Below, piece after piece: positions 1,963 through 33,720 of a stretch of DNA of 64,000 bases. Both the position numbers and the translations under genes were made by a program. The DNA lies in contig NZ_VUYU01000022.1 of NCBI RefSeq assembly GCF_011682065.1, positions 1-64,000 of the forward strand, in the 5' to 3' direction. Every line of letters begins with the position of its first letter. Position 1 is the stretch's first letter. This stretch comes from Massilia rubra (lineage in GTDB: Bacteria > Pseudomonadota > Gammaproteobacteria > Burkholderiales > Burkholderiaceae_D). Under the pieces are notes generated by a model. The model made no database searches and had not been told where the DNA came from. It saw only the letters and a program-made list of their open reading frames with translations.

Positions 1963-2033
1963 ATTTATATGATCGATATATAAATGCATAAATGAAATGG
2001 TATTTGTCAGCCGCGCAGCCAGTGCTGCATAGT
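1963..2033 (+). promoter_or_regulatory. Nucleoside-regulon operator and promoter, site A
   Basis: Operator ATTTATAT-GATCGAT-ATATAAAT lies at 1963-1985, with partly symmetric flanks TTTATGCAT (1952-1960) and ATGCATAAA (1984-1992). The -35 box TTGTCA is at 2004-2009 and the -10 box CATAGT, preceded by TG, is at 2028-2033 after an 18-bp spacer. The same palindrome, distances and -10 recur at 22594-22664 (reversed) and 33650-33720. The palindrome centre is about 66 bp before the expected start near 2040, a position usual for an activator. It points at the TonB receptor at 2311, leaving a leader of about 270 bases. Confidence 0.75.
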
Positions 2034-2039
2034 TGCCTG

Positions 2040-2310
2040 AGGATGATCCACGAAGCAATCTTGCCAGTCGCCACTTGGTCATGCTGGTGACATATTAAGT
2101 CAGTAGACTTGCGCGCTGCGCAGGACATTGTCGCGGTCGAGCGCGCTCGCTTGACGGACCTGGCCGATGAGAATAAGAACGGCATCGCGTTGATGTGACT
2201 GGTTTTTCGTGGCGGCGCCACCCGCGCCGCCAGCGCAGATTTGCAACAAAGTACAGAGGGAAAGCACCGCCGCTTTCCCACCATAACATGTCTTTTTTTG
2301 GGGTTACACA
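2040..2310 (+). promoter_or_regulatory. Structured leader of the TonB receptor mRNA
   Basis: The stretch between the predicted transcription start and the receptor ATG has no convincing ORF. It holds two clean hairpins: GGCGGCGC (2211-2218) with GCGCCGCC (2224-2231), and GGGAAAGC (2258-2265) with GCTTTCCC (2272-2279). A run of seven or more T follows at about 2290. A GCAACAAA word at 2243 recurs at 22722 in the leader of the second TonB receptor. No known riboswitch class is recognised; attenuation is possible but not shown. Confidence 0.4.
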
Positions 2311-5300
2311 ATGATCAAACATAATCGGATGCAGGTCACCAAGCTGGCGCTGGCGCTATCGATCGCGCTGGCGACCTTGCCGGCCATGGCGCAGAACACC
2401 ACGTCGGCCATCGGCGGGCGCATTTCCGCCGCCGACGGCAAGCCAGCCAGCGGCGCGACCGTATCCATCGTCCACGCCGAATCCGGTTCCGTCAGCAATG
2501 TCGTCACCGATGGCGAAGGGCGCTATGTGGCGCGCGGCCTGCGTTCGGGCGGCCCGTACACGATCATCATCACCAAAGACGGCATCACCGAAAAACGCGA
2601 AGGTGTGTTCATCCAGCTGGCCGAGACCGCTTCCATCGACGCCACCCTGGGCGCGCCGATGCAGACCGTGACCATCGCCGGTTCGGCTGCCCGTTCCGAA
2701 AAATTCTCGAAAACCAACATGGGCTCGGGCACCAGCCTCGGTTCGACCGAAATCGCCACCCAGGCATCGATCCAGCGCAATCTGCAGGACTACGCCCGCG
2801 CCGACCCGCGCGTGGCCCAGACCGACAAGGAACGCGGCGAAATCTCCGTGGCCGGCCAGAACTCGCGCTACAACTCGCTGACCATCGACGGCGTGGCCGT
2901 GAACGACACCTTCGGCCTGGAATCGAACGGCAGCCCGACCGCCAAGCAGCCGATCTCGATCGAAGCGATCCAGACCGTGCAGGTCAACGTCGCCAACTAC
3001 GACGTCACGCAAAAGGGCTACACCGGCGGCAACATCAATGCCGTCACCAAGTCCGGCACCAACACCCTCAAGGGCAGCCTGTATTACGTGTTCCGTAACG
3101 ACAAGATGTCGGGCGATCGCTACAACAACGCCAACGACACCTACTACGCGCCGCCATCGTCGAAGGACACCACCGCCGGCTTCACCCTGGGCGGCCCGCT
3201 GATCCAGGACAAGCTGTTCATTTTCGCCAACTACGAGAAGCTCGAGTCGAGCCGCGCCGCGCCGGCCTTCGGCCCGCTGGGCAGCTCGCTGACCAACGTC
3301 GGCATTTCGCCGCTGCTGATCTCGTCGGCCCAAAGCATTGCCAAGGACCGTTACGGCCTCAATGCCGGCACCACCGACGTGCCGAGCGGCGCCAAGCTGA
3401 ATGTGGAAGATGCGCTGGTCAAGGTCGACTGGAACATCAACGACGACCACCGCGCCATGTTCCGCTACTCGAAGACGTCGCAGTCCGAGCCGCAATTTGC
3501 CGGCATTTCCGCCACCGGCCTGTCGCTCAATTCGCAGTGGTTCGCGCAAGACAAGACCATCGAAACCTTCGTGGCCCAGCTGACGTCCGACTGGAGCCCG
3601 AACTTCTCGACCGAATTCAAGATTTCGCAGCGCGACTACGACAGCGTGCCGACCCTGAACTCGCGCCTGCCGTCGATCAGCCTGTCGATGACCGGTCGTA
3701 ATCCGGACGGTACGCCGGCATCGGTGCCAACCACCAACCGCTCGCTCGCCTTCGGCACTGAGAACAGCCGTCACCGCAACGTTCTCGGCACCAAGACCGA
3801 CGACATTTACCTGGGCGCAAACTGGGCCCTGGGCGATCACGAAGTCAAGTTCGGCACCGACTACAGCAACAACAAGGTCTACAACGCTTTCCAGCAAAAC
3901 ATTTTCGGCAACTACTCGTTCAGCTGCCAGAACAGCAGCGATACCTGGACCTACAGCTTCGGCAAGATCACCTGCGGCAGCGCGACCCCTGCCCAGGTTG
4001 AACAGGCGATCCTGGAAAACTTCAGCAAAGGCCGTCCAAGTTCGTACCAGGTGCAGGTTGCCGCACCTGGCGTGAACCTGGCCGACGCCGTCGCCGACTT
4101 CTCGCTGAAAAACTACGGCGCGTTTGTGCAGGATACCTGGACCCTCAGCCCACGCCTGACCGTGACCGCCGGCGTGCGTCTCGACGCCGCCCGCATCAGC
4201 GACCGTCCGCGCCGCAACAACGCCATCGCCGCAGCGAAGATCGAAGGCAATGTGCTGACCGGCGCGCGCGAAAAAGGCGGCTATGGCATGGACAACACCA
4301 ACACCTTCGACGGCCAGAACCTGGTGCAGCCGCGTTTCGGCATCAACTACCAGCTCGACACCAGCCGCAAGATGCAAATTCGCGGTGGCGCCGGCCTGTT
4401 CCAGGGTAACGCCGCCGCTGTGTGGCTGTCGAACCCGTTCTCGAATCCTGGCGTGGCAACCACCACGGTCGGTTGCGGCACCGGCAACTTTGCGTCGTGC
4501 AACGGCGCGACCATCTTCAATGCCGATCCAGACCAGCAAAAGACCAACTTCGTCGGCGTGACCACGCCAGCGGCCAACGTCGACATCCTGGCGCAAGGCT
4601 TGCGCCAGCCGTCGGTGTGGAAGGCCAACGTCGCCTTCGACATGGAACTGCCTTGGTACGGCCTGGTGTTCAGCGCGGAATACCTGCACGTCAAGTCCAA
4701 AGATGCGATCTACTACCAGAACTTGAACCTCGGCGCCGCCACCCGTAAAGGCAGCGACGGCCGCGACCTGTTCTACACCAACCAGGCTTACAACAAGGAT
4801 TGCTGGAGCTCGAACGGTAACGTGATCAACAGCGGCACCGTCTGCGGCGGCCTGCGTTCTAAAGCACTGAGCAACGAATCGTTCGCCAACGTGCTGCTGG
4901 CGCAAAAGACCGACAAGGGCGGCAGCGGCATGGCCACCATGTCGATCAGCCGTCCGATGACCTCGGGCCTGGGCTGGTCGATGGCGTACACCTACACCGA
5001 CGCCAAGGAAGTCTCGCCACTGACCTCGTCGACCTCGAACTCGAACTTCACCGGCCGTTCGGTGTTCAATCCGAATGAAGAAGTCAACGCCAATTCGAGC
5101 TACCTGGTCAAGAACCGCGTGAACGCCATCGTCAACTTCCAGAAGAACTTCTTCGGTGCTTACAAGACGCGCTTCGGCATGTTCTACGAAGGCCGTTCGG
5201 GTAAACCTTACAGCTGGACCATCAACAACGACTTGAACGGCGACGGCTCCGGTGGTAACGACTTGATGTACATCCCGTCGGCGCCAGGTTCGGGCGAAGT

Positions 5301-5730: not shown

Positions 5731-5752
5731 TGCCTAGCTAAGTAACTCAAGG

Positions 5753-5784
5753 AACGGCCGGTGGCGACACTGGCCGTTTTTTTT
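5753..5784 (+). terminator. Rho-independent terminator after the TonB receptor
   Basis: AACGGCCGGTG pairs with CACTGGCCGTT across a short loop, and eight T residues follow directly. It lies 22 bases after the receptor stop codon. Confidence 0.9.
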
Positions 5785-5866
5785 CGTCCCGCGCGATACA
5801 TTCCCGATACATTTCAAGGGGCGTAGCGTCCGCTGCGGCCCGCGCTCTTCGGTTATCCTACTACCT

Positions 5867-7555
5867 ATGACACTATTCTCAAGGCCCCTTTGCGCCGCGC
5901 TCGCCGCGGCCTTCCTGTCGGCGGGCTGCGCCACGCGCCCGACGGCCCAGATCGAGATCAACCTGGTTGCGCTGAACGACTTCCACGGCCACCTCGACGC
6001 CACCAAATTCCAGTACAACAGCATCCACGCCAGCGGCCAGCAAACCGTGCAAGCGGGCGGGGTCGACACCATCGCCGCCGCCGTCCAGGCCTGGCGCCGC
6101 GAGGACAAGGACCTGCTGTTCGTCGGCGCCGGCGACCTGATTGGCGCCTCGCCCGCCATGTCGTCGATGTGGGCGGACGAACCGGCGCTGGAGGCGTTGA
6201 CCATGGCCGGCATGCGCATCTCCTCGGTCGGCAATCACGAATTCGATAACGGCCGCGCCGAACTGCTGCGCCAGCAGCGCGGCGGCTGCGAGTCGGTGCG
6301 CCCCGAAAAGGCCTGCCAGTTCACCAAGGACTTCCGTGGCGCCGGCTTTAGCTACCTGGCCGCCAACGTGATCGACGACGCCACCGGCAAGCCGTTCCTG
6401 CCGGCTTACCGGATCGAAGACGTCAAGGGCGTCAAGGTCGGCCTGATCGGCGCCGTGCTGCGCAACACCGCCTCCGTGGTGCTGGCCTCGGGCATCGTCG
6501 GCCTGACGTTCGAAGATGAAGCGACTGCGATTAACCGCGTCATCCCCGCCATGCGCGCGCAGGGAGCGCAGGTGTTCGTGGTGCTCATTCACGAAGGCGG
6601 GACCACGCCGGAACCGTTCGACAAGCCCGATTGCAGCAAGCTGAAAGGCCCGGTGGTCGACATCGTCAAGAAGCTCGATCTGGCCATTCGCGTGATCGTC
6701 AGCGGCCACTCGCACACGGGCTTCCAGTGCAAGGTCGACGGGCGCGTGGTGACCCAGGGCGAGATGGGCGGCCATGTCCTCTCGCGCATCAAGATGATGG
6801 TCGACCCGGCCAGCGGCGCGGTGGGCGACATCGCGGTGCGCAACGTGATCATGAAACCGGGCCAGTATCCACCGGATGAACGCGTCTCGGCTTTCCTCAA
6901 GCAAGCGAAGGATCGCAGCGAGCAGGCCCTTGGGCGCCCGGTCGCGCGCGTGGCTGTGCGCTCGATCCACCGCAAGGAAAGCGCGGGCGGCGAAACCGTG
7001 TTGGGTGGCCTGATCGCCGACGCGGTGCTGTCCGCCACCGAATCGCAGGGCGTGCAGATCGGCTTCATGAACATGGGCGGCATGCGCCAGGATCTCGACG
7101 TCGAAGCCAACCTCACCGCCACCTACGGCGACGTGCAGATCGTGCTCCCGTTCGGGAACACCATCGTGGTCATGGACATGAGCGGCGCTCAACTGCGCGC
7201 GCTGCTCGAACAGCAATGGGCGCGTCCGGGCGCGAGCAGCGTCTCGGTGCTGCAGGTGTCGGATGGCTTCAGCTATCGCTGGAACAAGGCCGCGCCGAAA
7301 GGACAGCGCGTCGTGCGCGACAGCGTCACCCTGAACGGCAAGGCGATCGACGACGCCGCCATTTATCGCGTGGCCGGGAATAACTTCCTGGCCGAAGGCG
7401 GCGACAGCTTCCCCGCCTTTGCCGCCGCCACCAACAAGCGCGATACGCAGATCCGCGATATCGACGCCGTGGTGCAATTCCTGGTCAAGCAGGACAAGGC
7501 CGGCAAGCCGGCGGGCAGCGACACGCCGCCGGGTCGCATCGGGACGGTCCAATGA
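5867..7555 (+). CDS. Exported 5'-nucleotidase / metallophosphoesterase lipoprotein
   Basis: Predicted to strip phosphate from extracytoplasmic 5'-nucleotides so that nucleosides can be taken up. The 562-residue protein starts with a lipoprotein signal whose lipobox LSAGC puts the acylated cysteine at residue 21. Metallophosphoesterase motifs follow in order: NDFHGH, GAGDLIGASP, GNHEFDNG and SGHSHTGF, giving the two-metal site. The C-terminal half (from about 350) is the 5'-nucleotidase substrate-binding domain, with NMGGMRQD and LPFGN. Length is normal for the UshA/5'-nucleotidase family. The last four bases overlap the next gene (ATGA), so the two are translationally coupled. A separate UDP-sugar hydrolase activity is possible. 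Confidence 0.9.
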   Translation: MTLFSRPLCAALAAAFLSAGCATRPTAQIEINLVALNDFHGHLDATKFQYNSIHASGQQTVQAGGVDTIAAAVQAWRREDKDLLFVGAGDLIGASPAMSSMWADEPALEALTMAGMRISSVGNHEFDNGRAELLRQQRGGCESVRPEKACQFTKDFRGAGFSYLAANVIDDATGKPFLPAYRIEDVKGVKVGLIGAVLRNTASVVLASGIVGLTFEDEATAINRVIPAMRAQGAQVFVVLIHEGGTTPEPFDKPDCSKLKGPVVDIVKKLDLAIRVIVSGHSHTGFQCKVDGRVVTQGEMGGHVLSRIKMMVDPASGAVGDIAVRNVIMKPGQYPPDERVSAFLKQAKDRSEQALGRPVARVAVRSIHRKESAGGETVLGGLIADAVLSATESQGVQIGFMNMGGMRQDLDVEANLTATYGDVQIVLPFGNTIVVMDMSGAQLRALLEQQWARPGASSVSVLQVSDGFSYRWNKAAPKGQRVVRDSVTLNGKAIDDAAIYRVAGNNFLAEGGDSFPAFAAATNKRDTQIRDIDAVVQFLVKQDKAGKPAGSDTPPGRIGTVQ

Positions 7556-8766
7556 CGCCCCTTCGGCGCGGCCTCGTCGCACTGCTTGCGCTGGTCCTGG
7601 GACCGCATGCGCAGGCCGGTTTTTCCATCCCCGGCTATGAACTGGTGCAGACCGCGCCGGTGGAAACGACGCTCGTCAACGCCGACCTGCGCAGCAGCGC
7701 CGCGGTCTGGACGCAGCTGTTCGACGAGGCGCGCAGCGAGATCGTGATCGGCCAGTTCTACGCCATCAGCAAGGCCGGCACGCCGTTCGACAAGGTGGTG
7801 GAGCGCCTGGAGGCGGCCAGCGCGCGCGGTGTGAAGATCCGCTTTTTGCTCGACAAGAAAGGTATCGGCCTGTCCGATCCGGCCACCTTGGAGCGGCTGC
7901 GCAAGGTCCCCAATCTGGAGATGCGCGTGCTCGATTACGCGCAGCTGACCGGCACCGGCATCATCCACGCCAAGTACCTCGCGGTGGACAAGAAGGCCGC
8001 CTTTATCGGCAGCCAGAATTTCGACTGGCGCGCCTTTACCCACATTCACGAAACGGGCCTGTTGATTACCGACGCGGCCATGGTGGCGCAGGTGCACGCG
8101 GTCTTCGAACGTGACTGGCAGGCGCAGTCGCTGCTGGCGGCCAAGCTGGCGGTGCCGCGCGCGCTGGCCGTTGCGGTATCGCCGCAAGCTGCGCAACTGG
8201 TCGCCAGCCCGGCGGCGTACAACCCGCCCGGCGTGGCCGATTCCGAAGTGGTGCTGCCGGCGCTGCTGGCCGATGCGCGCAGCGAGGTGCGTATCCAGTT
8301 GCTCGACTATGCGCCGCTCGGCTACGGACCTGACAACACGCGCCCGTACTATGGCGTGATCGACAATGCGGTGCGCGCGGCCGCAGCGCGCGGCGTGAAA
8401 ATCAAGCTGATGGTATCGAACTGGAACACCGACCAACCCGGCATCGCCTACCTCAAAAGCCTGGCGCTGCTGCCGAACGTGGAGGTGCGCATCGTCACCT
8501 TGCCGGTGGCGTCGGGCGGGCCGATTCCGTTCGCGCGCGTCATCCACAGCAAGACCATGACGATCGACGGCAAGCTGGCCTGGGTCGGCACCAGCAACTG
8601 GGCCGGCGGCTACTTCGACAAGTCGCGCAATCTCGAAGTCGTGCTGCGCAACGAGAAAATGGCGCAGCGCCTCGGCGCGCTGCACGAGCAGGCGTGGAGC
8701 TCCTCGTACGCGGCGCCGATCGAGATTGGCAAAGACTATCCAAAACCGAACAAGGGAAATGAATGA
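7552..8766 (+). CDS. Exported phospholipase D-fold protein
   Basis: This 404-residue protein has a cleavable signal peptide (about 1-21, ending AQA) and two PLD-type HxK catalytic motifs: IIHAKYLAVDKKAAFIGSQN in the first half and VIHSKTMTIDGKLAWVGTSN in the second. The family includes phospholipases, cardiolipin synthases and the Nuc endonucleases. With a 5'-nucleotidase before it and an S1/P1 nuclease after it, both joined by 4-base ATGA overlaps, a role in breaking down extracellular nucleic acid or membrane phospholipid is plausible. No family member with exactly this activity is recognised. The protein has no transmembrane segments beyond the signal, unlike cardiolipin synthase. Confidence 0.8.
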   Translation: MTPLRRGLVALLALVLGPHAQAGFSIPGYELVQTAPVETTLVNADLRSSAAVWTQLFDEARSEIVIGQFYAISKAGTPFDKVVERLEAASARGVKIRFLLDKKGIGLSDPATLERLRKVPNLEMRVLDYAQLTGTGIIHAKYLAVDKKAAFIGSQNFDWRAFTHIHETGLLITDAAMVAQVHAVFERDWQAQSLLAAKLAVPRALAVAVSPQAAQLVASPAAYNPPGVADSEVVLPALLADARSEVRIQLLDYAPLGYGPDNTRPYYGVIDNAVRAAAARGVKIKLMVSNWNTDQPGIAYLKSLALLPNVEVRIVTLPVASGGPIPFARVIHSKTMTIDGKLAWVGTSNWAGGYFDKSRNLEVVLRNEKMAQRLGALHEQAWSSSYAAPIEIGKDYPKPNKGNE

Positions 8767-9818
8767 TGAAGAAACTGGCTTGTGTACTGGCGCTGTCCGC
8801 CGCCTTCGTGTCGGCCGAGGCGCTGGCTTGGGGCGCCGAGGGGCACCGCGCGGTCGGCGCCATCGCCGAAAAACTGATCAAGGGCAGCAACGCCGAAAAG
8901 CAGGTGGCGGCCTTGCTGCTGCCGGGAGAGAGCCTCGAATCGATCACGGTATGGGCCGACAGCGCCAAGGGCGGCGTCGGCTACACGCCGCCGACCGCCG
9001 AGATGAACGCTTACACGGCGGTCAATCCGCGCCACAGTGAATATCACTACACCGACATCCCGTTCCAGAACGAGCACTATCATGACGGTGCGGTGGGCAC
9101 GGCCGATGTCGACATCGTGCAAACGCTCAAGCAGGCCATCGCCGTCTTGCAGGGCAAGACCGATCCGGCGCTCAATCCCAACAAACTGACCCGACGCCAG
9201 GCCTTGCTGCTGGTGGCGCACATGACCGGCGACATCCACCAGCCGCTGCACGTTGGCGCGGCGTTTGTCGGCAAGGATGGCAAGTTCGTTGTGCCGAAAA
9301 AGCACGAGGATGTCGACAGCCTGAATATCTACGATTCGCGCGGCGGCAACAGCCTGCTGCTCGACGACGACAAGCTCACGTCGCTCAGCGCGAAGCTGAT
9401 CGAGGGCGAAGCCAAGCCCCTGCCGCCGGGTGCGCAGAAGTGGACCACGCGGCCGTTCCACTCGTACTGGGACAGCACCGTGGTCGATTACGCGATGCGC
9501 CGCATCAGCACCAAGACGCCGGAGCAGTTCGCGCAGAAGGTCATCGACGGCAAACCGGTGGTGGCGATGAACACGGGCGATGCGACCAGTTGGCCGTACC
9601 AGTGGGCGGACGACGCGCTGGCCGCGTCCAAGCTGGCGTATTCGGATGTAACGCCGGGTGCGATCGGCAAGCAGACCAACCGCAAAGGCGAGACCTACTA
9701 CACCTTCGGGCTGGAGATGGGATCGAACTACCCGGTGCCGAGTTCCGCGCTGGCCAAAACGCAGCTGATCAAAGGCGGCTACCATCTGGCGTCGCTGCTG
9801 CAAACCATCTGGCCGTAA
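8763..9818 (+). CDS. S1/P1-type zinc nuclease, exported
   Basis: Predicted periplasmic or secreted nuclease that cuts single-stranded DNA and RNA to 5'-mononucleotides. The precursor is 351 residues. The signal peptide ends AEALA directly before Trp23, so processing exposes WGAEGH as the mature N-terminus. In P1-type nucleases the amino group and carbonyl of this Trp bind zinc, with the His of EGH. Other ligands are in HMTGDIHQPLH and in the YTDIPF region. The start overlaps the preceding stop (ATGA). Products feed the nucleotidase encoded two genes upstream. A half copy of a dispersed palindromic repeat follows the stop. Confidence 0.92.
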   Translation: MMKKLACVLALSAAFVSAEALAWGAEGHRAVGAIAEKLIKGSNAEKQVAALLLPGESLESITVWADSAKGGVGYTPPTAEMNAYTAVNPRHSEYHYTDIPFQNEHYHDGAVGTADVDIVQTLKQAIAVLQGKTDPALNPNKLTRRQALLLVAHMTGDIHQPLHVGAAFVGKDGKFVVPKKHEDVDSLNIYDSRGGNSLLLDDDKLTSLSAKLIEGEAKPLPPGAQKWTTRPFHSYWDSTVVDYAMRRISTKTPEQFAQKVIDGKPVVAMNTGDATSWPYQWADDALAASKLAYSDVTPGAIGKQTNRKGETYYTFGLEMGSNYPVPSSALAKTQLIKGGYHLASLLQTIWP

Positions 9819-9829
9819 ATCTTCCCCCA

Positions 9830-9866: not shown

Positions 9867-9886
9867 ATCCACCCGTGAGCATCCTC

Positions 9887-12334: not shown

Positions 12335-12354
12335 GTCAATCTGAGGAGGCGGTG

Positions 12355-16565: not shown

Positions 16566-17534
16566 TTAACGCGATTTGACGAACGGTTTGCCGATCGCTT
16601 TCGGCGCCACCGACTTGGCCATCAGGCCGGCCAGCACGATCACGGTGACCACGTACGGCACCATCTGGATCAGCGAGCCCGGAATGCGGCCGATGCCCGG
16701 CAAGTCCACGCCTTCGATCTGGATCTGCACCGCGCTGAAAAAGCCGAACATCATGCAGCCGAGCGCCGTGTACATCGGACGCCAGTTACCGAACACCAGC
16801 GCCGTCAGCGCCAGGTAGCCAGCGCCGGCCGACATATCGCGCAGGAAGAAACCACTTTGCACAATCGCCAGGTAAGCACCCGAGAACGAGCACAGGATGC
16901 CGGCCACCAGCATCGCCATGTAGCGCGTGGTGGCGACACTGACGCCGGCCGCGTCGGCCGCGTGCGGGTTTTCTCCACAGGCGCGCAGGCGCAGGCCAAA
17001 GCGGCTGTGGTAGATCACCCAGTGCACCAGCGGGATCAGCGCGAACGCCAGGTACACCAGCGCCGAATGGCCGCCGATCACGTGCCCGTAGAACCAGCCG
17101 ATGAAAGGAATGCCTTCGAGCGCCTGGGTGCCAGGCAAGACGATGTCGAACAGGCGCGCCTGGCCCAGGTCCGGCGTGCGGCCACCCTGCTGGTAGAAGA
17201 ACTGCGCCAGCACGAAAGTCAGGCCGCTCATGGCGATGTTGATCGCAATGCCGCCCACCAGCTGGTTGCCCTTCTGGGTGATGCTCACGTAACCCTGCAA
17301 CAGCGCCAGTGCGGCCGATACGGCCACGCCGGCAGCCACGCCGTACCAGGCGTTCTGCGTGGTGAAGGCGACAGCGGCCGAGACGAACGCGCTGGCGAGG
17401 ATCTTGCCCTCTAATGCGATGTCGACCACGCCGCTGCGTTCGGCGAACAGGCCGGCCATGGCGGCAAAAATCAGGACGGGTGCATTGCGGATCGTGGAGA
17501 CGACAATGCTGGCTAAATGGAGGTCTTCGAACAT
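16566..17534 (-). CDS. BMP-type ABC importer, permease 2 (NupQ/YufQ-like)
   Basis: Inner-membrane permease of 322 residues in the branched-chain amino-acid/ribose permease superfamily, with about eight to nine hydrophobic spans. The family signature region EDLHLASIVVSTIRNAPVLI...AERSGVVDIALEGKI opens the protein, and LRACGENPHAADAAGVSV contacts the ATPase. Its relatives (NupQ, YufQ) move purine and pyrimidine nucleosides. It is encoded three bases after the partner permease, in the order ATPase, permease 1, permease 2 on the minus strand. Substrate assignment to nucleosides rests on family and on the surrounding salvage genes. Confidence 0.9.
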   Translation of the reverse strand: MFEDLHLASIVVSTIRNAPVLIFAAMAGLFAERSGVVDIALEGKILASAFVSAAVAFTTQNAWYGVAAGVAVSAALALLQGYVSITQKGNQLVGGIAINIAMSGLTFVLAQFFYQQGGRTPDLGQARLFDIVLPGTQALEGIPFIGWFYGHVIGGHSALVYLAFALIPLVHWVIYHSRFGLRLRACGENPHAADAAGVSVATTRYMAMLVAGILCSFSGAYLAIVQSGFFLRDMSAGAGYLALTALVFGNWRPMYTALGCMMFGFFSAVQIQIEGVDLPGIGRIPGSLIQMVPYVVTVIVLAGLMAKSVAPKAIGKPFVKSR

Positions 17535-17537
17535 GGC

Positions 17538-18616
17538 TTATCCTTTGCGAATGTTAAGCAGCTTCAGGACAGCGGGCGCATACAGATTTTCCATCGCGCC
17601 GCAGAACAGGATGATCAGCCCCTGGATGAAGATGAAGGTCTCCTGCGGGATGTTCGGTTTTTCCAGCGACAGGTCGAAGCCGCCCTGGATCAGTGCACCG
17701 AACAAGACGCTCGAGAGGAAAATGCCGACCGGGTGCTGGCGTCCCATCAACGCGATCGCGATGCCGATAAAACCGGCGCCGGCCGGGAAGTTCAGGCTCA
17801 GGTAATGGGTCGAGCCCATGACCGAATTGACCGCGGCCAGGCCGGCCAGCGCGCCCGAAATGAGCATCGCCACGATGATCATGCGGCTGATCGAGACGCC
17901 CGCATAATGCGCCGCGCTTTGATTCAGACCCGTGGCGCGCAGCTGGTAGCCCCACGAGGAGCGCCACACCATCACGCCGTAGATGACCAGGGCGGCAATG
18001 GCGATCAGGAAGCTGACGTTGAGCGGAGTATCGCCCAGGACCGGGAACCATTCGTTCAGGCGCGGCATGGCGCCGGCGTCCGAGAACACGCGGCTGGCGG
18101 GGTTTTGCTGGCCTTCCGGGATCAGGTACTTGACGATGATGAAGTTCATCAGGCTGGCCGCGATGAAGTTGAACATGATCGTCGTGACCACCACATGGCT
18201 GCCGCGCTTGGCCTGCAGATAGCCGGGCAGCCAGGCCCAGGCCGCGCCGAACACCGCGCTGCCGAGCATGGCGGCGGGAATCAGGAGCCAGGCGGGCAGC
18301 GAGTGGTCGAGCGTGAGCATGACCACGGTCAGTCCCAGGCCGCCGACGTACATCTGGCCTTCGCTGCCGATGTTGAACAGGCCCGCCTTCATGGCGATCG
18401 ATACCGACAGGCCGGTAAAGATGAAGGTACTGGCGTAGAACAGCGTGTAGCTCAGGCCCTCCGGGTTGATGACGGCGCTGTCGATCAGGATGCGCAGCGA
18501 TTCGGTCGGGCTTTCGCCGAGCAGGTGGATCACCAGCGCGGCCACCAGCAAAGCCGATAACAGGTTCAGTACAGGCAGGACAAACGCGCTTGCCCAGCGT
18601 GGGAGTTCGGTCGTTT

Positions 18617-18620
<4 letters not shown>
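17538..18620 (-). CDS. BMP-type ABC importer, permease 1 (NupP/YufP-like)
   Basis: A 360-residue permease with about nine to ten hydrophobic spans and an N-terminal extension typical of the longer subunit. The motif GLFNIGSEGQMYVGG is characteristic of this permease class, and LRATGLNQSAAHYAGVS forms the ATPase-coupling region. The start overlaps the ATPase stop by four bases (ATGA), so they are translationally coupled. It pairs with the downstream permease to form the channel of a nucleoside-type importer. Confidence 0.9.
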
Positions 18621-20146
<1,526 letters not shown>

Positions 20147-20182
20147 AGCGGTCAGTGGTAAGAGATAAAGGTAAATGAGTTC

Positions 20183-20224
20183 AAAAGCGCGCCGGACCAG
20201 TCAAGACTGGTGCGGCGCGCTTTT
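20183..20224 (-). terminator. Intercistronic attenuating terminator after the binding-protein gene
   Basis: AAAAGCGCGCCG and its complement flank a second complementary pair, ACCAGTC/GACTGGT, giving a long nearly perfect hairpin bounded by A4 and T4. It would partially stop leftward transcription between the binding protein and the ATPase/permease genes, the usual way to make more binding protein than transporter. Confidence 0.8.
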
Positions 20225-20243
20225 CTGAGAAGCGGGGGAGAAT

Positions 20244-21239
20244 CTAGACCGGGCAGCTGCTGCCAGCGCGGTAGTCGACCACTTTGACCTTGCCGCTGAT
20301 GATATTGGCCTTGGCTTCGTTGACGCGCTTTTCGATTTCCGGCGTGACGACCGCACGGTTATCCTTGTCCAGCGCCCAATCGACGCCGCCTTCTTTCAAG
20401 CCTTTGTAGGTGACGCCGGCTTTCCAGGTGTTGTTCTTCATCTGCATGAAAGAATCGTAGATCGCCAGGTCGACCCGCTTGACCATGGAGGTCAGCATGG
20501 TACCCGGATGCAGGTAGTTCTGGTTCGAGTCGACGCCGATGGCCAGCTTGCCTTTTTCCTTGGCCGTTTGCAGGGTGCCCATGCCGCTGCCGCCGGCAAC
20601 GGCGAAGACAACGTCCACGCCGCGGTCGAACTGCGCGCGCGCCAGCTCACCGCCCTTGGCCGGGTCGTTCCAGGCCGCGCTGGTGGTGCCGACCATGTTT
20701 TGCATGACTTCGATTTTCGGATTGGTCGCTTTTGCGCCCTGGCTGTAGCCGCAGGCGAAAGTGCGGATCAGCGGAATGTCCATGCCGCCCACGAAACCGA
20801 TTTTCTTCGACTTCGACGCGATGGCGCCGGCCACGCCGGCCAGGTACGAGCCTTCTTCTTCCTTGAACAGGATCGAGTTGACGTTCGCGCCCTTGGCAAC
20901 GGCGTCGATCAGCACGAAGCGCACGTTCGGGAATTCCTGCGCGACCTTCTGCACGGCCTGCGTCTGCGAGAAGCCGACGGCGGCGATCAGGTCGAGCTTT
21001 TTGCGCGCCAGGCCGCGCAGCACTTGTTCGGCCTGGGTATCGCTGCTGGCCTGCGCCTCGATGTATTTGATGTTGGTCTCTTTCTTGAAGCGCTCGGCGC
21101 CTTCGAAAGCGGACTGGTTGAACGACTTGTCGAACTTGCCGCCGGCGTCGTACACGATGCCCAGTTTCGGGTCGGCAGCCGTGGCGCTGGCGGCGACGCA
21201 CAGCGCCGCGATCGTGATACTAAGTTGCTTTAATTTCAT
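20244..21239 (-). CDS. BMP-family (PnrA/NupN-like) nucleoside-binding protein
   Basis: Periplasmic substrate-binding subunit of 331 residues with a Sec signal peptide (about 1-22, ending ASATA) and no lipobox. The BMP-family hallmarks are the strand LGIVYDAGGKFDKSFNQSAFEG at the mature start, VGFVGGMDIPLIRTFACGYSQG in the middle and IGVDSNQNY towards the end. Relatives bind purine nucleosides (PnrA) or nucleosides generally. A good Shine-Dalgarno (AGGAG) precedes the ATG. The gene follows transaldolase by 79 bases on the same strand and leads the ABC operon. The shared nucleoside promoter upstream of transaldolase could drive all five genes. Confidence 0.92.
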   Translation of the reverse strand: MKLKQLSITIAALCVAASATAADPKLGIVYDAGGKFDKSFNQSAFEGAERFKKETNIKYIEAQASSDTQAEQVLRGLARKKLDLIAAVGFSQTQAVQKVAQEFPNVRFVLIDAVAKGANVNSILFKEEEGSYLAGVAGAIASKSKKIGFVGGMDIPLIRTFACGYSQGAKATNPKIEVMQNMVGTTSAAWNDPAKGGELARAQFDRGVDVVFAVAGGSGMGTLQTAKEKGKLAIGVDSNQNYLHPGTMLTSMVKRVDLAIYDSFMQMKNNTWKAGVTYKGLKEGGVDWALDKDNRAVVTPEIEKRVNEAKANIISGKVKVVDYRAGSSCPV

Positions 21240-21318: not shown

Positions 21319-22398
21319 CTAAGCAAGCAAAGCCAGCAAATTGGCGTGTGCTTGCTCGAATTGTGTCAGGCCGGCGCGCAAGAGGTCGTTACCAATTGTA
21401 TCGAGTGCGATGCCGTGCCGCCCCAGTTGCGTCAATACGGCGCGCGCCTGGTCGACGTCCTCAATGAGCGACAGGCGCGCTTCGCCGTGCTCGCGAAAGG
21501 CCGTCAGGGTCGCATCGGGCACCGTATTGACGGTGTCCGCGCCGATCAATTCTTCAACGTAGGTCACGTCGCGCATGGCCGGATCCTTGACGCCGGTGCT
21601 GGCCCACAGCAGCCATTGCGGCGTGGCGCCGAAGGCGGTGAAGATGGCAAAGCCGGCGTCGTTCCTGAACTCGTGATACGCCACGCGCGCGGCGGCAATG
21701 GCCGCCTTGCCGCGCAGGGCCGCCGCGGCTGGCGGCAGCAGCGCGTCGACGGCGGCGTCGACCCGGCTGATAAACATGCTGGCCACGCTGGCGATGCGCT
21801 GCACCGACAGTTTCGCTTCCAGGCGGCGCGCCAGTCCGCGCCGGTGCGCCGCGCGCACGGCGGCCAGCTGGGTGGCGCTGAAAATGAGGGTGACGTTGAC
21901 GTTGATGCCGGCATAGATCACTTCTTCGAGCGCCGCGATGCCCGCTTCGGTGGCGGGAATCTTGATCATCGCATTCGGCCGGCCGATGGCCGCCCACAGG
22001 CGCACCGCATCGGCCACCGTGCCAGCGCAATCGTGCGCCAGGCGCGGCGCGACTTCAAAGCTCACAAAACCGGCGCGGCCGCCGCTGGCGGTATACAGGG
22101 GCGCGAACAGGTCGCACGCGGCTTGCACGTCGGGCAGCGCCAGCGCTTCGAAACGCGCTTCCGGCTCAGGGAAGGCCGCGCGCAGCGCCGGCAGCGCGGC
22201 CCGGTAGGCGGGGTCGCTGCGGATCGCGTTGTAGAAAATGGCGGGATTCGAGGTCACGCCCTGAACGCCGTCGTCGGCAATCCAGCGCGCCAGTTGGCCC
22301 GATGCGATCAAATCGCGACTGAGGTTGTCGAGCCAGATTTGCTGGCCGAGGCCGGCAACGGCCTTCAGGCGGCTGGCGGATGCACTAAGTTGGTTCAT
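21319..22398 (-). CDS. tal: Transaldolase (mycobacterial/cyanobacterial-length subfamily)
   Basis: Moves a dihydroxyacetone unit between sedoheptulose-7-phosphate and glyceraldehyde-3-phosphate in the pentose-phosphate pathway, which disposes of ribose-5-phosphate. The protein has 359 residues. Signature WLDNLSR near residue 22, GVTSNPAIF near 48, and MIKIPAT with the Schiff-base Lys near 145 are all present. An N-terminal GLGQQIWLDN layout and ~360-residue length match the longer Tal subfamily rather than E. coli TalB. Located between a nucleoside-type importer and a nucleoside-type promoter, it fits handling of pentose from imported nucleosides. AGGAAA lies before the ATG. Confidence 0.9.
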   Translation of the reverse strand: MNQLSASASRLKAVAGLGQQIWLDNLSRDLIASGQLARWIADDGVQGVTSNPAIFYNAIRSDPAYRAALPALRAAFPEPEARFEALALPDVQAACDLFAPLYTASGGRAGFVSFEVAPRLAHDCAGTVADAVRLWAAIGRPNAMIKIPATEAGIAALEEVIYAGINVNVTLIFSATQLAAVRAAHRRGLARRLEAKLSVQRIASVASMFISRVDAAVDALLPPAAAALRGKAAIAAARVAYHEFRNDAGFAIFTAFGATPQWLLWASTGVKDPAMRDVTYVEELIGADTVNTVPDATLTAFREHGEARLSLIEDVDQARAVLTQLGRHGIALDTIGNDLLRAGLTQFEQAHANLLALLA

Positions 22399-22593: not shown

Positions 22594-22664
22594 ACTATGC
22601 ATCAGCACTAATATGTATGGCAAATACGATTTTGCTTCGTCATTTATATGATCGAAATATAAAT
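22594..22664 (-). promoter_or_regulatory. Nucleoside-regulon operator and leftward promoter, site B
   Basis: On the minus strand the palindrome ATTTATAT-TTCGATC-ATATAAAT (22642-22664) is followed, after exactly 18 bp, by -35 TTGCCA (22623-22618), an 18-bp spacer, and TG-CATAGT as -10 (22599-22594). The 16-base stretch GTATTTGCCATACATA covering the -35 is identical to that at 33687-33702. Predicted start is near 22588, about 190 bases ahead of transaldolase. Confidence 0.78.
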
Positions 22665-25165: not shown

Positions 25166-25187
25166 GCATCGACTGATGCCGCAACCT

Positions 25188-25224: not shown

Positions 25225-25233
25225 AGGAAGAAC

Positions 25234-25713: not shown

Positions 25714-25727
25714 GGCGCCGCCCCGGT

Positions 25728-25986: not shown

Positions 25987-25990
25987 GGTA

Positions 25991-28154: not shown

Positions 28155-28452
28155 GATTGGCCGGCCCTCGTATGTGGCGCCACCATACCGCCGCCGTTCC
28201 TGCCGTCCGCAGGGGCGGCGCTTCACCGCCGGAGAGTTCATGCAATCAGCAGTCAACCTGTGGCCGCTCATCGGCGTCGCCGTCATCATCGTCGGCTTCG
28301 TGCTGCGCGTGCATCCCGTGCTGGTGGTCGTCGCCGCGTGCGGGGCCACCGGCCTGGCCGTGTCGATGCCGGTCGAAGCGCTTTTCGCCTCGCTCGGCAC
28401 CGCTTTCATCAAAACGCGCAACCTGCCGATGATCCTGCTGCTGCCGCTGGCC
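28146..28452 (+). repeat. Direct repeat partner of 25728-25986
   Basis: Covers the end of the ABC-F gene, the DUF969 upstream region and its first 71 codons. It is the intact counterpart of the truncated copy. The two copies flank the ABC-F gene in direct orientation. Confidence 0.75.
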
Positions 28453-28932
28453 GCCATCGGCCTGCTCGAACGCTTCGGCCTGAAGGAACACGCGCAGGCC
28501 AGCATCGCCAAGATCAAATCGGCCACCACCGGCCGCCTGCTGATCGTCTACCTGGCCGTGCGCGAAGTCTCGGCCGCATTCGGGCTGACCAGTCTTGGCG
28601 GGCACCCGTCGATGGTGCGCCCGCTGGTCGCGCCCATGGCCGAAGCGGCCGCCGAAACGCGCAAGGGCAGCATCAGCGACAAGCTGCGCTACCGCATCCG
28701 CGCCATGTCGGCCGCCACCGACAACGTTGGCCTGTTTTTCGGCGAAGATGTCTTTGTCGCCTTCGGGGCTATCGTGCTGATGCAAACCATCCTCGCGGCC
28801 GAAGGCATCCTGGTCAATCCGCTGCACATGGCGCTGTGGGGCATTCCCACCGCGATCACCGCCTTCATCATTCATGCCTGGCGCCTGCACCGCTTCGACG
28901 CCGAGATCGCGCGCGACGGAGGGGCCGCATGA
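28240..28932 (+). CDS. 5-oxoproline transporter subunit, DUF969 family
   Basis: Integral membrane protein of 230 residues. The ATG after GGAGAG was chosen over an upstream one because the family begins close to LWPLIGVAVIIVGF. About six hydrophobic stretches are present, with a conserved MPVEALFASLGTAFIKTRNLPM loop and ERFGLKEHA. DUF969 and DUF979 proteins are encoded together with pyroglutamyl-peptidase in many bacteria and are annotated as a two-part 5-oxoproline transporter. Here the order is DUF969-DUF979-pcp, each overlapping the next by four bases (ATGA), so the three form a tightly coupled operon. Confidence 0.88.
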   Translation: MQSAVNLWPLIGVAVIIVGFVLRVHPVLVVVAACGATGLAVSMPVEALFASLGTAFIKTRNLPMILLLPLAAIGLLERFGLKEHAQASIAKIKSATTGRLLIVYLAVREVSAAFGLTSLGGHPSMVRPLVAPMAEAAAETRKGSISDKLRYRIRAMSAATDNVGLFFGEDVFVAFGAIVLMQTILAAEGILVNPLHMALWGIPTAITAFIIHAWRLHRFDAEIARDGGAA

Positions 28933-29888
28933 TCATCCTGCTCGACTACTTCTACCTGGCGCTGGGCGCCATGCTGGCCGCGTCGGCTGTCATGTCGCTG
29001 CGCGACAAGGACAATCCGCGCCGCTATTCGAGCGCCTTGTTCTGGGGCCTGTACGCCGCGGTCTACCTGGTTGGCGAACGGCTGCCGCCAGCGCTGGTGG
29101 GCGTGATCATGATCACGATGGCGCTCATCGCCGGCTGCGGCGGCGTCACCCTCGGCAAGTACGGCGTGCGCACGACTGAGGAAAAGACCTCCAGCGCGCG
29201 CCGCCTCGGCCACCTGCTGTTCATCCCCGCGCTGATCATCCCGGTCGTGACCATGATCGGTTCGACCCTGCTCAAGGATGTGCAGATCGGCGGCCTGCTG
29301 CTGCTCGAAACCAAGCACATTACGCTGGTCAGCCTGGGTTGCGCCTCGGTGCTGGCGGTCGGCGCGGCCTGCTGGCTGACCCGTTCCACGCCGCTGCAGG
29401 GCATGCGCGAATGGCGCCGCCTGACCGATGCCGTCGGCTGGGCGGTGGTGCTGCCGCATATGCTGGCCGTGCTCGGGCTGCTGTTCGCCGAAGCGGGCGT
29501 GGGCAAGGCGGTTGCGCACATCACCACCTCCTACATCAACATGGATTCGCGGTTTGTCGCGGTGGTGGTGTTCTGCGTCGGCATGGCGCTGTTTACCATC
29601 ATCATGGGCAATGGCTTCGCGGCCTTTCCGGTGATGGCGGGCGGCGTCGGCATTCCGGTCCTGATCGGCCAGTACGGCGCCAACCCGGCGGTGATGGCCG
29701 CCATCGGCATGTTCAGCGCCTACTGCGGCACCTTGATGACGCCCATGGCGGCCAACTTCAACGTGGTGCCGGTGGTGCTGCTCGAACTGCCCGACAAGCA
29801 CGCGGTGATCAAGGCGCAGATACCGACCGCGCTGCCGCTCTTGGTGGCAAATATCTTCCTGCTGTATTTTTTGATGGGTCAGAAATGA
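28929..29888 (+). CDS. 5-oxoproline transporter subunit, DUF979 family
   Basis: Integral membrane protein of 319 residues with about nine to ten spans (for example [20 protein letters not shown] and [16 protein letters not shown] at the end). The start overlaps the DUF969 stop by ATGA, which sets the start. Family hallmarks visible are [16 protein letters not shown] and [14 protein letters not shown]. It partners with DUF969 to bring in 5-oxoproline (pyroglutamate) or related compounds, by family association. Confidence 0.9.
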
Positions 29889-30529
29889 CGAGAACAGTGC
29901 TGCTGACGGGCTTCGAGCCGTTCAATAAAGAGACTATCAACCCGGCGTGGGAGGCGGTGCGCGCGCTGGCCGGAGTCGAGGGCGATGGCTACCGCGTCGA
30001 AGTGCGCCAGTTGCCCTGCGTGTTCGGCGCCGCCGGCGAGGTGCTGCGCGCGGCCATCGACGAGCTGCGGCCGGCGGTGGTGATCGCGGTCGGGCAGGCC
30101 GGGGGCAGGGTGGACCTGTCGGTCGAACGCATCGCCATCAATATCGACGACGCGCCCATTCCCGACAACGCCCAGTGCCAGCTGGTCGACCAGCCGGTGG
30201 TCGAAGGCGGACCGGCGGCGTACTTTTCGACCCTGCCGATCAAGGCCATCGTGACGCGCTTGCGCGACAGTGGTTTGCCGGCGTCGGTGTCGCAGACGGC
30301 CGGCACTTTTGTATGCAATCACGTTTTCTATAGCCTGATGCACCAGACGGTGGGCCGCGATATCCGGGCCGGCTTCATTCACATTCCGTATTTGCCGCAG
30401 CAGGCGGCAGCGCACCCGGGTGCGCCCAGCATGGCGCTGGCCGAGGTGGTGCGGGGGTTGACGATGGCGCTGGAAGCGGCGCTGCTTGTCGGCGACGACA
30501 TCTGCGTCGCCGGCGGGGCAGTCGACTAG
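29885..30529 (+). CDS. pcp: Pyroglutamyl-peptidase I
   Basis: Cytosolic cysteine peptidase that removes N-terminal pyroglutamate from peptides. The protein has 214 residues, the usual length. The triad falls at canonical positions: Glu81 in VERIAIN, Cys144 in AGTFVCNH and His166 in FIHIPYLP. The N-terminal signature LLTGFEPF is present. Its start overlaps the DUF979 stop (ATGA). Its stop overlaps the convergent LysR gene by four bases, so the two genes meet tail to tail with no terminator between them. Confidence 0.96.
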
Positions 30530-31425
30530 GCGGTCGGATTGAGGATATTCAGGAACGCCCGCACCACCGGCGCATCGTCCTGCGTGGTGTAGGTGATGTA
30601 CAGATTGGCCGATGGCGGGTTGGTCTTGATCGGCAAGAAGATCACGCCCGGCCAGCCGATGCGGCTGGTCGTCTCCGGCATCAAGGCCACGCCCAGGCCA
30701 GCGCCCACCATCGCCAGCAAGGTTTGCGGCTCGGACGCTTCCTGGAAAATCGTCGGCTGGAACCCGGCCTTGATGCAGCACTGGATCAGGTAGCGCGGAA
30801 AGGCCGACTTGTCCAGCGCCAGCGTGAGCATCGGCTGGTCCGCAATGTCGGCCAGTTCGATCCACGGCTGCGTGGCCAGCGGATGGTGCTCGTTGACGGC
30901 CACGCATACGTTCTCGCGGAAGCACAGCTCCTGGCGCAGGTTGTCGTGTTTGAGTTCATCTTCATCGAGCTTGGGCTCGCGCCAGAAACCCACGTCGATC
31001 TGCTTGGCGCGCAGCGCCTCGTACTGCACGTTCGGTCCCGACTCGTGCAGGGTCCAGGTCACGCGCGGGAACTTGGTCTGGAATTCTTCGAGCAGGCTCG
31101 GAATCGGCCCCCACATGGCCGAACCGACGATGCCCACCCGCAGGCGTCCGACTTCACCCCGGTCGATCTGGCGGATGGTGTCGATCGTCATGCGCATCTT
31201 GGCCAGCAGGTCCGATGCTTCCCCCATCAACGCCTTGCCCGCCACCGTCAGCTCGAAGGTGCGGGTGGTGCGCGCGAACAGGCGCACGCCCAATTCGCTT
31301 TCGAGCTTCATGATCTGCTGGCTCAAAGGCGGCTGCGAGATGTGCAGCCGCTCGGCGGCGCGGCTGAAGCTCTTTTCTTCAGCTACCGCGAGGAAGTACT
31401 TGAGCTGTTTCAGGTCGATGGACAT
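30526..31425 (-). CDS. LysR-family transcriptional regulator
   Basis: A 299-residue regulator. The N-terminal winged helix (about 1-60) has the LysR hallmark [21 protein letters not shown] followed by [11 protein letters not shown]. The C-terminal co-inducer domain (about 90-295) carries [12 protein letters not shown] and ALMPET. It lies 18 bases after the pseudouridine glycosidase stop on the same strand, so it may be the third gene of the psuK-psuG unit. It converges on pcp. Targets could be the psu genes or the 5-oxoproline operon; nothing in the sequence decides. Confidence 0.9.
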
Positions 31426-31443
31426 GGCGTATGGGGTCGGGGG

Positions 31444-32373
<930 letters not shown>

Positions 32374-32375
32374 GG

Positions 32376-33530
32376 TCAGTCCTGGTAAAGAGCGTTGAAC
32401 GGTTGCTGGGCGCCGGGCAGGGCGTCGGGATTCGGAATCTCGGCGAGCACTTCCGCCGTCAGGTAAGGGCATACGGTTTCTTCGCAGGCGAGCGTCATGG
32501 CCGACAATTGCAGGCCGCGCCTGCAGGCCAGCGTCATGTCGTCGCTGCCATGGAACAGGGACCAGCATACCGCAGCGGCAAAGGCGTCGCCCGCACCGGT
32601 GACGTCGACGATCTGCGCCGGCGGCGCGTCCAGCTGCGCGATGCCGCCGGCAGTGGTGTAGACCACGCCGGTGGCGCCGCGCGTGACGATGACGTCCTGC
32701 GCGCCTTGCGCCTGGATGGTGCGGCAGGCGGCCAGGAAATCGGCGTCGGTCACGAGCCGCGCACCAATGCGCGTTTCGAGTTCGCCCTGGTTCAGGATCA
32801 ACAGGCGCAGGCCGCGCAGGTCGTCCGGCAGGTGCGCCATTTTCGGCTGCGATACGGCCACCAGCACCAGCGGCACCGAGCCGCGCGCGGCGTCGTCGAG
32901 CAGCGCGCGCAGGGTCTCGCGCGGCAGGTTCAGGTCGGCCACGATCAGGGCTCCGACGGCGCGCTGCGGCTGGCGCGTGTCCAGGAAGGCCGGCGTTATG
33001 GCGTCGTACAAGGCCATGTCGGCCAGGGCCAGCAGCATTTCGCCATGGTCGTCGAGTACGGCGGTATAGGTGCCGCTGCATACGCCGGTCAGGTGCAGGG
33101 TGGCGCGGGTGTCGATGCCGGCCGCCTCGGCATGCGCCAGCAGCGCCTTGCCGGACGAGTCGTCGCCGATGGCGGTGATCAGTGCAACGGGGGCCGACAG
33201 GCGCGCCAGGTTTTCCGCGATGTTGCGGGCCACGCCGCCGAACGATTCGTCCTGGCGCGCCGGGTTCGAGGTGCCCATCTTGAGCGTGGCGATGGAGCGC
33301 AGCTTGCGATCGAGGTTGGCCGCGCCGAGGCAGACGATGGGCCGGTTATCGGGCAGCACGTAGGCGCGCCCGAGCAGGCGGCGGTCGCGGATCAGGCCCG
33401 CGATGTAGCCCGCCACGGCGGAACGCGACAAACCGAGCACGCTGGCCAAGTCCTGCTGCGAGATGAAAGGATTGGCGCGGATCAGTTCGTACAACTGGTC
33501 TTTTTTGGAGAGTTCGGTCACAATAAGCAA
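32376..33530 (-). CDS. psuK: Pseudouridine kinase with N-terminal helix-turn-helix (PfkB family)
   Basis: Phosphorylates pseudouridine for the glycosidase downstream. The 384-residue protein joins a winged-helix-like domain (about 5-58, [21 protein letters not shown]) to a PfkB carbohydrate-kinase domain (about 64-365). The kinase part shows [14 protein letters not shown] near 98 and the catalytic motif [13 protein letters not shown]. The extra DNA-binding-like domain, also known in YeiI/PsuK-type kinases, could allow self-regulation. The start is uncertain: TTG at 33530, or GTG at 33521 (VTELSKKDQ); neither has a good ribosome-binding site. It is transcribed away from the purine nucleoside phosphorylase across operator C. 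Confidence 0.88.
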
Positions 33531-33649
33531 TCATTAAACAATTGTTTTTGATAGTAGACAAATGTCTTAGTGCTGTCAATCAATGATTGTGTCCTGCTCT
33601 CCTATAGTGCGCTCGAACGAATGCTGGGGTTCAACTGATTCTAGCGTGG

Positions 33650-33720
33650 ATTTATATGTTGCGCGTATAAATGAGGAAGAAAAATGGTATTTGCCATACA
33701 TATCACCGATCATGCATAGT
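33650..33720 (+). promoter_or_regulatory. Nucleoside-regulon operator and promoter, site C
   Basis: Operator ATTTATAT-GTTGCGC-GTATAAAT (33650-33672, one mismatch in the arms) lies 18 bp before -35 TTGCCA (33691-33696). An 18-bp spacer leads to TG-CATAGT as -10 (33715-33720). Architecture is the same as sites A and B. Predicted start is near 33727, about 80 bases before the phosphorylase gene. On the other side, TATAGG (minus strand, 33606-33601) lies at nearly the mirrored distance and could be the -10 for psuK. The rest of the 277-base intergenic region has no gene. Confidence 0.78.

What the first reader, a model, noticed from the sequence alone, without database searches (positions are those of the whole stretch)
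1963..33720. One operator-promoter architecture shared by three nucleoside loci
The palindrome ATTTATAT-N7-ATATAAAT occurs at 1963-1985, 22642-22664 and 33650-33672. In every case exactly 18 bp separate it from a TTGYCA -35 box, which is followed by an 18-bp spacer and TG-CATAGT. The loci encode a TonB receptor, transaldolase plus nucleoside ABC importer, and the purine phosphorylase cluster. Fixed geometry at three places tens of kb apart argues for one regulator, probably an activator given the centre at about -66. I do not recognise the motif as that of a known nucleoside regulator (CytR, DeoR, NupR).
Basis: partly seen in the sequence, partly recalled or inferred. Interest (0 to 1): 0.9.

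Follow-up and report, generated by a model that had tools for sequence, protein, structure and literature searches.

The report
A XapR-type switch for eating nucleosides
Three operons for breaking down, importing and digesting nucleosides in a Massilia bacterium share one promoter design that matches that of the E. coli xanthosine regulator XapR, so a single XapR-like protein encoded beside them probably switches on the whole set.

Summary
In detail: three elements share one geometry and occur nowhere else in the 7.57-Mb genome. Two corrections: palindrome C has one mismatch, and element B reads on the minus strand, into the transaldolase/ABC-importer operon.

The element recurs in Massilia, Duganella, Rugamonas, Pseudoduganella and Janthinobacterium and goes with one LysR-type gene, window 30526-31425 (-). 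All 101 of 294 family genomes with that gene have at least one loose-pattern hit, against 30 of 193 without it. Of 16 genomes with the neighbouring HTH-kinase but no LysR, 13 have none.

The LysR protein and E. coli XapR are best matches of each other (40% identity). Of 19 xapA promoters of gammaproteobacteria, 17, E. coli K-12 included, have a palindrome centred 26 bp before the start of G/ATATT at the -35, as all three window sites do; two do not.

So this is very probably a XapR-type activator whose regulon has grown from one operon to three: receptor and nucleases; importer; phosphorylases. Binding, inducer and activation are inferred. Known kind, new variant.

The parts
1963..2033 (+). 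Element A: palindrome 1963-1985, GTATTTGTCA 2000-2009 (-35 TTGTCA), CATAGT 2028-2033
22594..22664 (-). Element B: palindrome 22642-22664, -35 TTGCCA and -10 CATAGT on the minus strand
33650..33720 (+). Element C: palindrome 33650-33672 (one mismatch), -35 TTGCCA, -10 CATAGT
30526..31425 (-). XapR-like LysR-type regulator (proposed binder of A, B and C), 299 aa
2311..5730 (+). Gene behind A: TonB-receptor-like outer-membrane protein (OMP_b-brl_4 and CarboxypepD_reg above cut-off; TonB barrel and plug models just below theirs)
5867..7555 (+). UshA-like 5'-nucleotidase
7552..8766 (+). PLD-fold protein (PLDc_2; NucT-like below cut-off)
8763..9818 (+). S1/P1-type nuclease
21319..22398 (-). First gene behind B: transaldolase
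16566..21239 (-). ABC importer behind B: BMP-type binding protein 20244-21239, ATPase 18617-20146, permeases 17538-18620 and 16566-17534
33808..34650 (+). First gene behind C: XapA-type purine nucleoside phosphorylase
   Evidence: TIGR01699, 411.6 bits, cut-off 370.9
34741..42506 (+). Rest of operon C: DeoB 34741-36039, DeoC 36036-36992, aldehyde dehydrogenase to 39388, DeoA 39430-40752, cytidine deaminase 40878-41282, deaminase-like 41286-42506
   Evidence: one operon is inferred from order and strand
32376..33521 (-). HTH-PfkB kinase, divergent from C (rival candidate for the DNA-binding protein)
31444..32373 (-). PsuG-like protein (Indigoidine_A) between kinase and LysR gene

Best explanation
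The three elements are promoters controlled by one XapR-like LysR-type regulator encoded in the window (30526-31425, -). The upstream palindrome ATTTATAY-N7-RTATAAAT, a T-N11-A box centred near -66, is its anchoring site. A conserved A-rich link leads to GTATTTGYCA (followed by TACATAT at B and C), which contains the -35 and is the likely second, activating contact. With an inducer, probably a nucleoside, the bound tetramer would change its contact at the -35 and recruit polymerase to the poor -10 CATAGT, turning on nucleic-acid breakdown and uptake, nucleoside import, and phosphorolysis into central metabolism. Shown by computation: elements, geometry, conservation, linkage and distribution with the LysR gene, reciprocal best match to XapR, and the same 26-bp rule at xapA promoters. 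Inferred: direct binding, inducer, direction of control, the tetramer mechanism.
For: Three elements, unique in the genome. In 43 stretches of relatives, of 55 promoter-half matches (GTATTTGYCA and CATAGT, each within one mismatch) 49 have the palindrome, not used for selection, at exactly 14 bp before GTATT, one more ties (L051), 5 do not. LysR orthologue (69% identity or more) in 101 of 294 family genomes, all 101 with at least one loose-pattern hit; 30 of the other 193 have one. LysR without kinase keeps the sites (G019); kinase without LysR mostly lacks them (13 of 16). In 80 named loci fetched by the LysR protein, 80 have a site and 143 of 146 sites face xapA (79), the binding-protein gene (50) or transaldolase (14) on the same strand. 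In G019 the LysR gene is divergent and starts 33 bp from a site. Reciprocal best match with XapR: 203 bits against 142 for the next in the own genome, 203 against 152 in G695; NCBIfam NF007439: window 322 bits, E. coli XapR 531, cut-off 290. 26-bp rule: 17 of 19 xapA promoters. The model made from the family sites has its best hit in the whole G664 genome at that genome's xapA promoter. LysR-family consensus CTATA-n9-TATAG in PMC5002191 (passages) has the same register as TTATA-N9-TATAA.
Against: No binding or expression data. XapR's own sites were called low-evidence in PMC7567609 (one passage). Two of 19 xapA promoters (L120, L121) do not follow the rule, and in E. coli and L259 another palindrome at gap 17 scores 12 against 11. 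The arms differ: ATTTATA here, ATCRATA or ATTGATA in most enterobacteria. G184 has a full site at a contig end but no LysR was found. In G018 the site before the TonB-type gene is degenerate, and many g18 genomes show only one or two hits. Site A lacks the second half of the proposed activation box. 30 of 193 LysR-negative genomes have loose hits, more than the 11 of 294 with reversed-control hits; those I saw listed are mostly without GTATTTGYCA.
Confidence: 0.82

Rival explanations
1. The HTH-PfkB kinase (32376-33521) is the DNA-binding protein, sensing a nucleoside through its kinase domain, and the LysR gene is a bystander.
For: It has a winged-helix domain (HTH_24, 25.5 bits, cut-off 21.9), lies next to element C, and is in 100 of the 101 LysR-positive genomes.
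Against: 16 further genomes have the kinase without LysR, and 13 of them have no loose hit. The five of the 16 searched with the full model give no full-length match. G019 has sites and LysR but no kinase at E 1e-60. The 26-bp rule is shared with xapR loci of enterobacteria.
Confidence: 0.06
2. Another protein encoded elsewhere, with the same distribution as the LysR gene, binds the palindrome.
For: No binding data; G184 has a site without a detected LysR; palindromes of this type occur without GTATTTGYCA in g12 genomes that gave no LysR match (L008, L009).
Against: Linkage in 80 of 80 named loci (fetched by the LysR protein), divergent placement in G019, orthology to XapR with the same geometry.
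Confidence: 0.07
3. The LysR protein binds the elements but acts mainly as a repressor.
For: LysR proteins can repress; the palindrome could cover a divergent promoter at C.
Against: The palindrome lies well upstream of the -35, the -10 is poor (CATAGT), and the closest characterised relative, XapR, is an activator (PMC7205307 passages).
Confidence: 0.04
4. The three elements are copies of a repeated or mobile sequence without regulatory role.
For: Three near-identical elements within 32 kb.
Against: N7 and linker letters vary freely while arms and boxes stay fixed across genera; 143 of 146 sites face the expected gene on the same strand.
Confidence: 0.01

Closest known systems
XapR/xapAB of Escherichia coli (LysR-type activator of xanthosine catabolism)
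   Same: Reciprocal best matches, 40% identity; first target is a XapA-type phosphorylase; palindrome centre 26 bp before GTATT at the -35; one site upstream and one over the -35 (PMC7205307 passages)
   Different: Three operons instead of xapAB; no XapB-like transporter gene in the window, a BMP-type ABC importer and a TonB-type receptor instead; arms ATTTATA instead of ATCRATA
LysR-type promoters in general (T-N11-A, CTATA-n9-TATAG; PMC5002191 passages)
   Same: Register of the palindrome, centre near -66, second element over the -35
   Different: Own arms and a fixed GTATTTGYCA box
CytR of gammaproteobacteria and DeoR*/PnuR (Crp family) of Shewanella (PMC3454398 and PMC3223726, passages)
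   Same: Control nucleoside transport and phosphorylase genes
   Different: Other protein families (LacI, Crp); their sites were not compared here
HusR (YnfL), a second LysR protein reported to bind upstream of E. coli xapA (PMC12844172, passages)
   Same: LysR family, acts on xapA
   Different: The binding sequences listed there do not resemble the palindrome by eye; no test made

Membership tests
LysR-type transcriptional regulators | N-terminal HTH_1 and C-terminal LysR_substrate domains | tested here: met
   PF00126 91.2 bits and PF03466 133.6 bits, both above cut-off
LysR-type transcriptional regulators | T-N11-A palindromic site upstream of the promoter | tested here: met
   T6 and A18 in A, B and C; register as in PMC5002191
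LysR-type transcriptional regulators | Direct binding to the sites as a tetramer | not testable with these tools
   no assay
XapR | Reciprocal best match with E. coli XapR | tested here: met
   (own genome), in G695, whose XapR is 93% identical to that of E. coli
XapR | Scores above the cut-off of the NCBIfam model that E. coli XapR matches best (NF007439; that it is the XapR model is my recollection) | tested here: met
   322 bits, cut-off 290; E. coli XapR 531
XapR | Linked to a xapA-type phosphorylase gene | tested here: met
   window; 79 of 80 named loci hold both
XapR | Palindrome centre 26 bp before G/ATATT at the -35 of the target | tested here: met
   A, B and C; 17 of 19 xapA promoters
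XapR | Linked to a xapB-type xanthosine transporter gene | tested here: not met
   no match to E. coli XapB in the window at E 1e-3; I do not take it as a defining feature, since the regulator and not the transporter defines the family
XapR | Activation in response to xanthosine | not testable with these tools
   needs expression or ligand-binding assay

The most novel reading that the evidence does not exclude
A XapR-type regulator has become the master switch of a nucleic-acid-eating programme: nucleases and 5'-nucleotidase, a TonB-dependent receptor for nucleosides or oligonucleotides (a substrate class for which I recall no established TonB receptor), an ABC importer and complete phosphorolysis. 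In Janthinobacterium and Rugamonas it also reaches a response-regulator/LuxR pair beside a nuclease-like gene. The receptor slot is kept although an unrelated TonB receptor fills it in Massilia eurypsychrophila.
Probability: 0.4. Interest if true: 0.65.

Novelty: new variant of a known kind. Interest (0 to 1): 0.5.

Why it matters
It names a regulator and a readable DNA code (a 71-bp element with a 26-bp rule) for nucleoside use in Massilia, Duganella, Janthinobacterium and kin. It ties these sites to the XapR promoter, whose architecture PMC7205307 calls not yet fully understood (passage), and predicts where XapR sits at xapA in E. coli. It predicts that the TonB-type receptor behind A takes up nucleosides or oligonucleotides, which can be tested. 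The arm difference with matching changes around the helix-turn-helix offers a natural specificity experiment.

Tried and rejected
Rejected: element B driving the plus-strand TonB gene at 22874 (the promoter geometry is on the minus strand); an exotic promoter type (the -35/-10 gap is 18 in 44 and 17 in 9 of 53 sites, as for sigma-70); the ATTAATA-N9-TATAAAT of E. coli as the main XapR site (25 bp further up and absent from G660), though it cannot be excluded as a further site.

Errors of mine, mended: the kinase query was in the wrong frame, so its kinase rows, and the line in my notebook (entry 3) that the kinase is missing in G144 and G188, are void; redone. The DUF979 query held a stop. The first query over the PsuG ORF gave nothing; the shorter frame matches Indigoidine_A.

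Led nowhere: Rfam (0 matches in the window); tRNA (0); RNA fold of the leader of A (z -2.08); weak hits in G094 and G159 (L241, L242), of which L241 was looked at and lies before an unrelated ORF.

Literature: six searches listed no paper on this regulon; I saw listings and, for PMC7205307, PMC7567609, PMC8743547, PMC12844172, PMC3223726, PMC5002191, PMC5343134 and PMC3454398, passages only. The original XapR papers (PMC93943, PMC177358) are not held and were not read.
Full report
WHAT IS THERE. The palindrome is exact at A and B and one letter off at C. With strand taken into account all three sites are the same 71-bp element: palindrome (23), 14 bp, GTATTTGYCA (10, holding the -35 TTGYCA), 18 bp, CATAGT. 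B reads on the minus strand. In the 7,572,464 bp of the own genome the palindrome pattern and, separately, the promoter pattern each occur only at these three places.

GENES. Behind A: a TonB-receptor-like outer-membrane protein (OMP_b-brl_4 197 bits; the TonB barrel and plug models score 26.2 and 20.1, just below their cut-offs), an UshA-like 5'-nucleotidase, a PLD-fold protein and an S1/P1-type nuclease. Behind B: transaldolase and a BMP-type ABC importer. Behind C: a XapA-type phosphorylase, DeoB, DeoC, aldehyde dehydrogenase, DeoA, cytidine deaminase and a deaminase-like protein. Between B and C on the minus strand: an HTH-PfkB kinase, a PsuG-like protein and a LysR-type regulator. The host is a Massilia by its relatives: the LysR protein is 99% identical to those of M. 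frigida, M. aquatica, M. atriviolacea and M. mucilaginosa.

CONSERVATION. A pattern of palindrome plus TTGYCA at fixed spacing, up to 2 mismatches, hit 131 of 294 family genomes; the reversed control hit 11 of 294 (the 11 is my count of the table). Most g1 and g6 genomes have three or more hits, many g18 genomes one or two. In 43 stretches from relatives I looked for the promoter half and asked whether the palindrome lies upstream: of 55 matches with CATAGT within one mismatch, 49 have it at exactly 14 bp before GTATT (3 or fewer mismatches of 14), one ties (L051), 5 do not (7-9 mismatches). Column information over 41 distinct sites with at most one promoter mismatch (these rows were chosen by the promoter half): the arms, A28 and A29, A32 to A35, GTATTTGCCATACATAT, T61 and ATGCATAGT are kept; N7 and most linker bases are not. 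The -35/-10 gap is 18 in 44 and 17 in 9 of 53. A sequence model from 53 relatives' sites gives A, B and C as the only full matches in the own genome.

THE REGULATOR. A LysR orthologue of 69% identity or more is in 101 of 294 family genomes, in six genera (g1 17, g4 5, g6 26, g18 26, g19 1, g40 26), counting one frameshifted copy in an incomplete genome (G231); the 102nd listed genome (G112) has only a 39% match. All 101 have at least one loose-pattern hit; 30 of the other 193 have one (counted by hand). The kinase is in 116 genomes: 100 of the 101, plus 16 without LysR, of which 13 have no hit and 3 one each. Five of those 16 were searched with the model and give no full-length match. Around the kinase genes of three of them (G187, G240, G281; 15-17 kb) there is no palindrome within 2 mismatches, although two keep the importer at 74-81% identity. 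G019 has LysR and sites but no kinase match, and its LysR gene starts 33 bp from a site, divergently.

AGAINST. G184 has a full site at a contig end and no LysR was found. In G018 (g18) the stretch before the TonB-type gene keeps GTATTTGTCG but not the palindrome, so site A is not universal. Similar palindromes without the promoter box occur in two g12 genomes (L008, L009). The loose pattern hits LysR-negative genomes more often (30 of 193) than the reversed control hits genomes (11 of 294).

XAPR. The protein is 40% identical to E. coli XapR over nearly its whole length, and each is the other's best match (the second test used G695, whose XapR is 93% identical to that of E. coli, and gave the xapR locus first in G660 and G664 too). 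PMC7205307 (passages) says that xapAB is thought to have two XapR sites, one overlapping the -35 and one upstream, and that removing the upstream one strongly reduced the response; PMC7567609 (one passage) calls both sites low-evidence. From E. coli, G660 and G664 I noticed that the palindrome centre lies 26 bp before the start of GTATT, as in the window. I then fetched 15 further xapR loci; one (L268) held no xapA and was dropped. Of 19 xapA promoters 17 show a palindrome at this spacing, with GTATT or ATATT; dinucleotide shuffles reach the score 0 to 13 times in 500 for these; L120 and L121 fail. Five of the 19 were in hand before the rule was stated (three fit, two fail); the 14 fetched afterwards all fit, 13 of them with gap 14 best of the gaps 9-19; in L259, as in E. 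coli, gap 17 scores one more (12 against 11). The arms are ATCRATA or ATTGATA in most enterobacteria and ATTTATA in the window and in G664. G664 shares SFS and RTTR near its recognition helix with the window protein, against HFG and RHSR in most of the others; a single independent case, suggestive only.

MECHANISM (inferred). A LysR tetramer anchored at the palindrome and bridging an A-rich linker to a second box at the -35 (ATTT-N7-ATAT at B and C) would activate a weak promoter when a nucleoside binds. Site A keeps only half of the second box and may be tuned differently.

SCOPE AND NOVELTY. The kind is known: XapR-type LysR promoters. New, so far as six searches of an open-access library show, are the 26-bp operator rule, the three-operon regulon and the inclusion of a TonB-type receptor.

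Noticed in passing
L238:3835-3881 (G048) and L240:3729-3782 (G144): A fourth copy of the element, down to GATGCATAGT, before an OmpR-type response regulator and a LuxR-type gene, just after a PEP-CTERM-like ORF and a gene with LTD and Exo_endo_phos domains; not found in the own genome.
   Followed up: partly
L239:3655-3708 (G048): A site-like element on the minus strand between a chemotaxis-receptor-like ORF and a TonB-receptor-like ORF on the plus strand; no target gene on its own strand is apparent.
   Followed up: partly
L008 and L009 (G053, G012, genus g12): A palindrome TTTATAT-N7-ATATAAA followed by another shared sequence instead of GTATTTGYCA, in genomes without a LysR match at E 1e-60; perhaps another LysR protein's site.
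   Followed up: no
L052:7578-7648 (G184): A full element at the end of a 7.7-kb contig in a genome of genus g23 with no LysR match; horizontal transfer, contamination or a gap.
   Followed up: no
window 10949-14451: HlyD-like and peptidase-C39 ABC exporter genes with lower third-position GC (0.67-0.68) than the neighbours (about 0.85); possibly acquired.
   Followed up: no
window 2034-2310: About 270 nt between the -10 of A and the first gene; the predicted RNA fold is only slightly better than shuffles (z -2.08) and Rfam gives nothing.
   Followed up: partly
upstream of element C in relatives (e.g. L045, L049, L050, L095-L100, L102, L103): A TATAAT-like box on the far side of the palindrome suggests a divergent kinase-psuG-lysR promoter that the bound regulator would overlap, that is, autoregulation. 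Not clear in the window itself.
   Followed up: no
L107:6990-7012 (E. coli K-12 xapA upstream): A second palindrome, ATTAATA-N9-TATAAAT, 25 bp upstream of the one that fits the 26-bp rule; also in L259.
   Followed up: partly
window 28240-30530: DUF969, DUF979 and pyroglutamyl-peptidase genes lie convergent to the LysR gene; they are in 51 of 80 named loci against 79 of 80 for xapA.
   Followed up: partly
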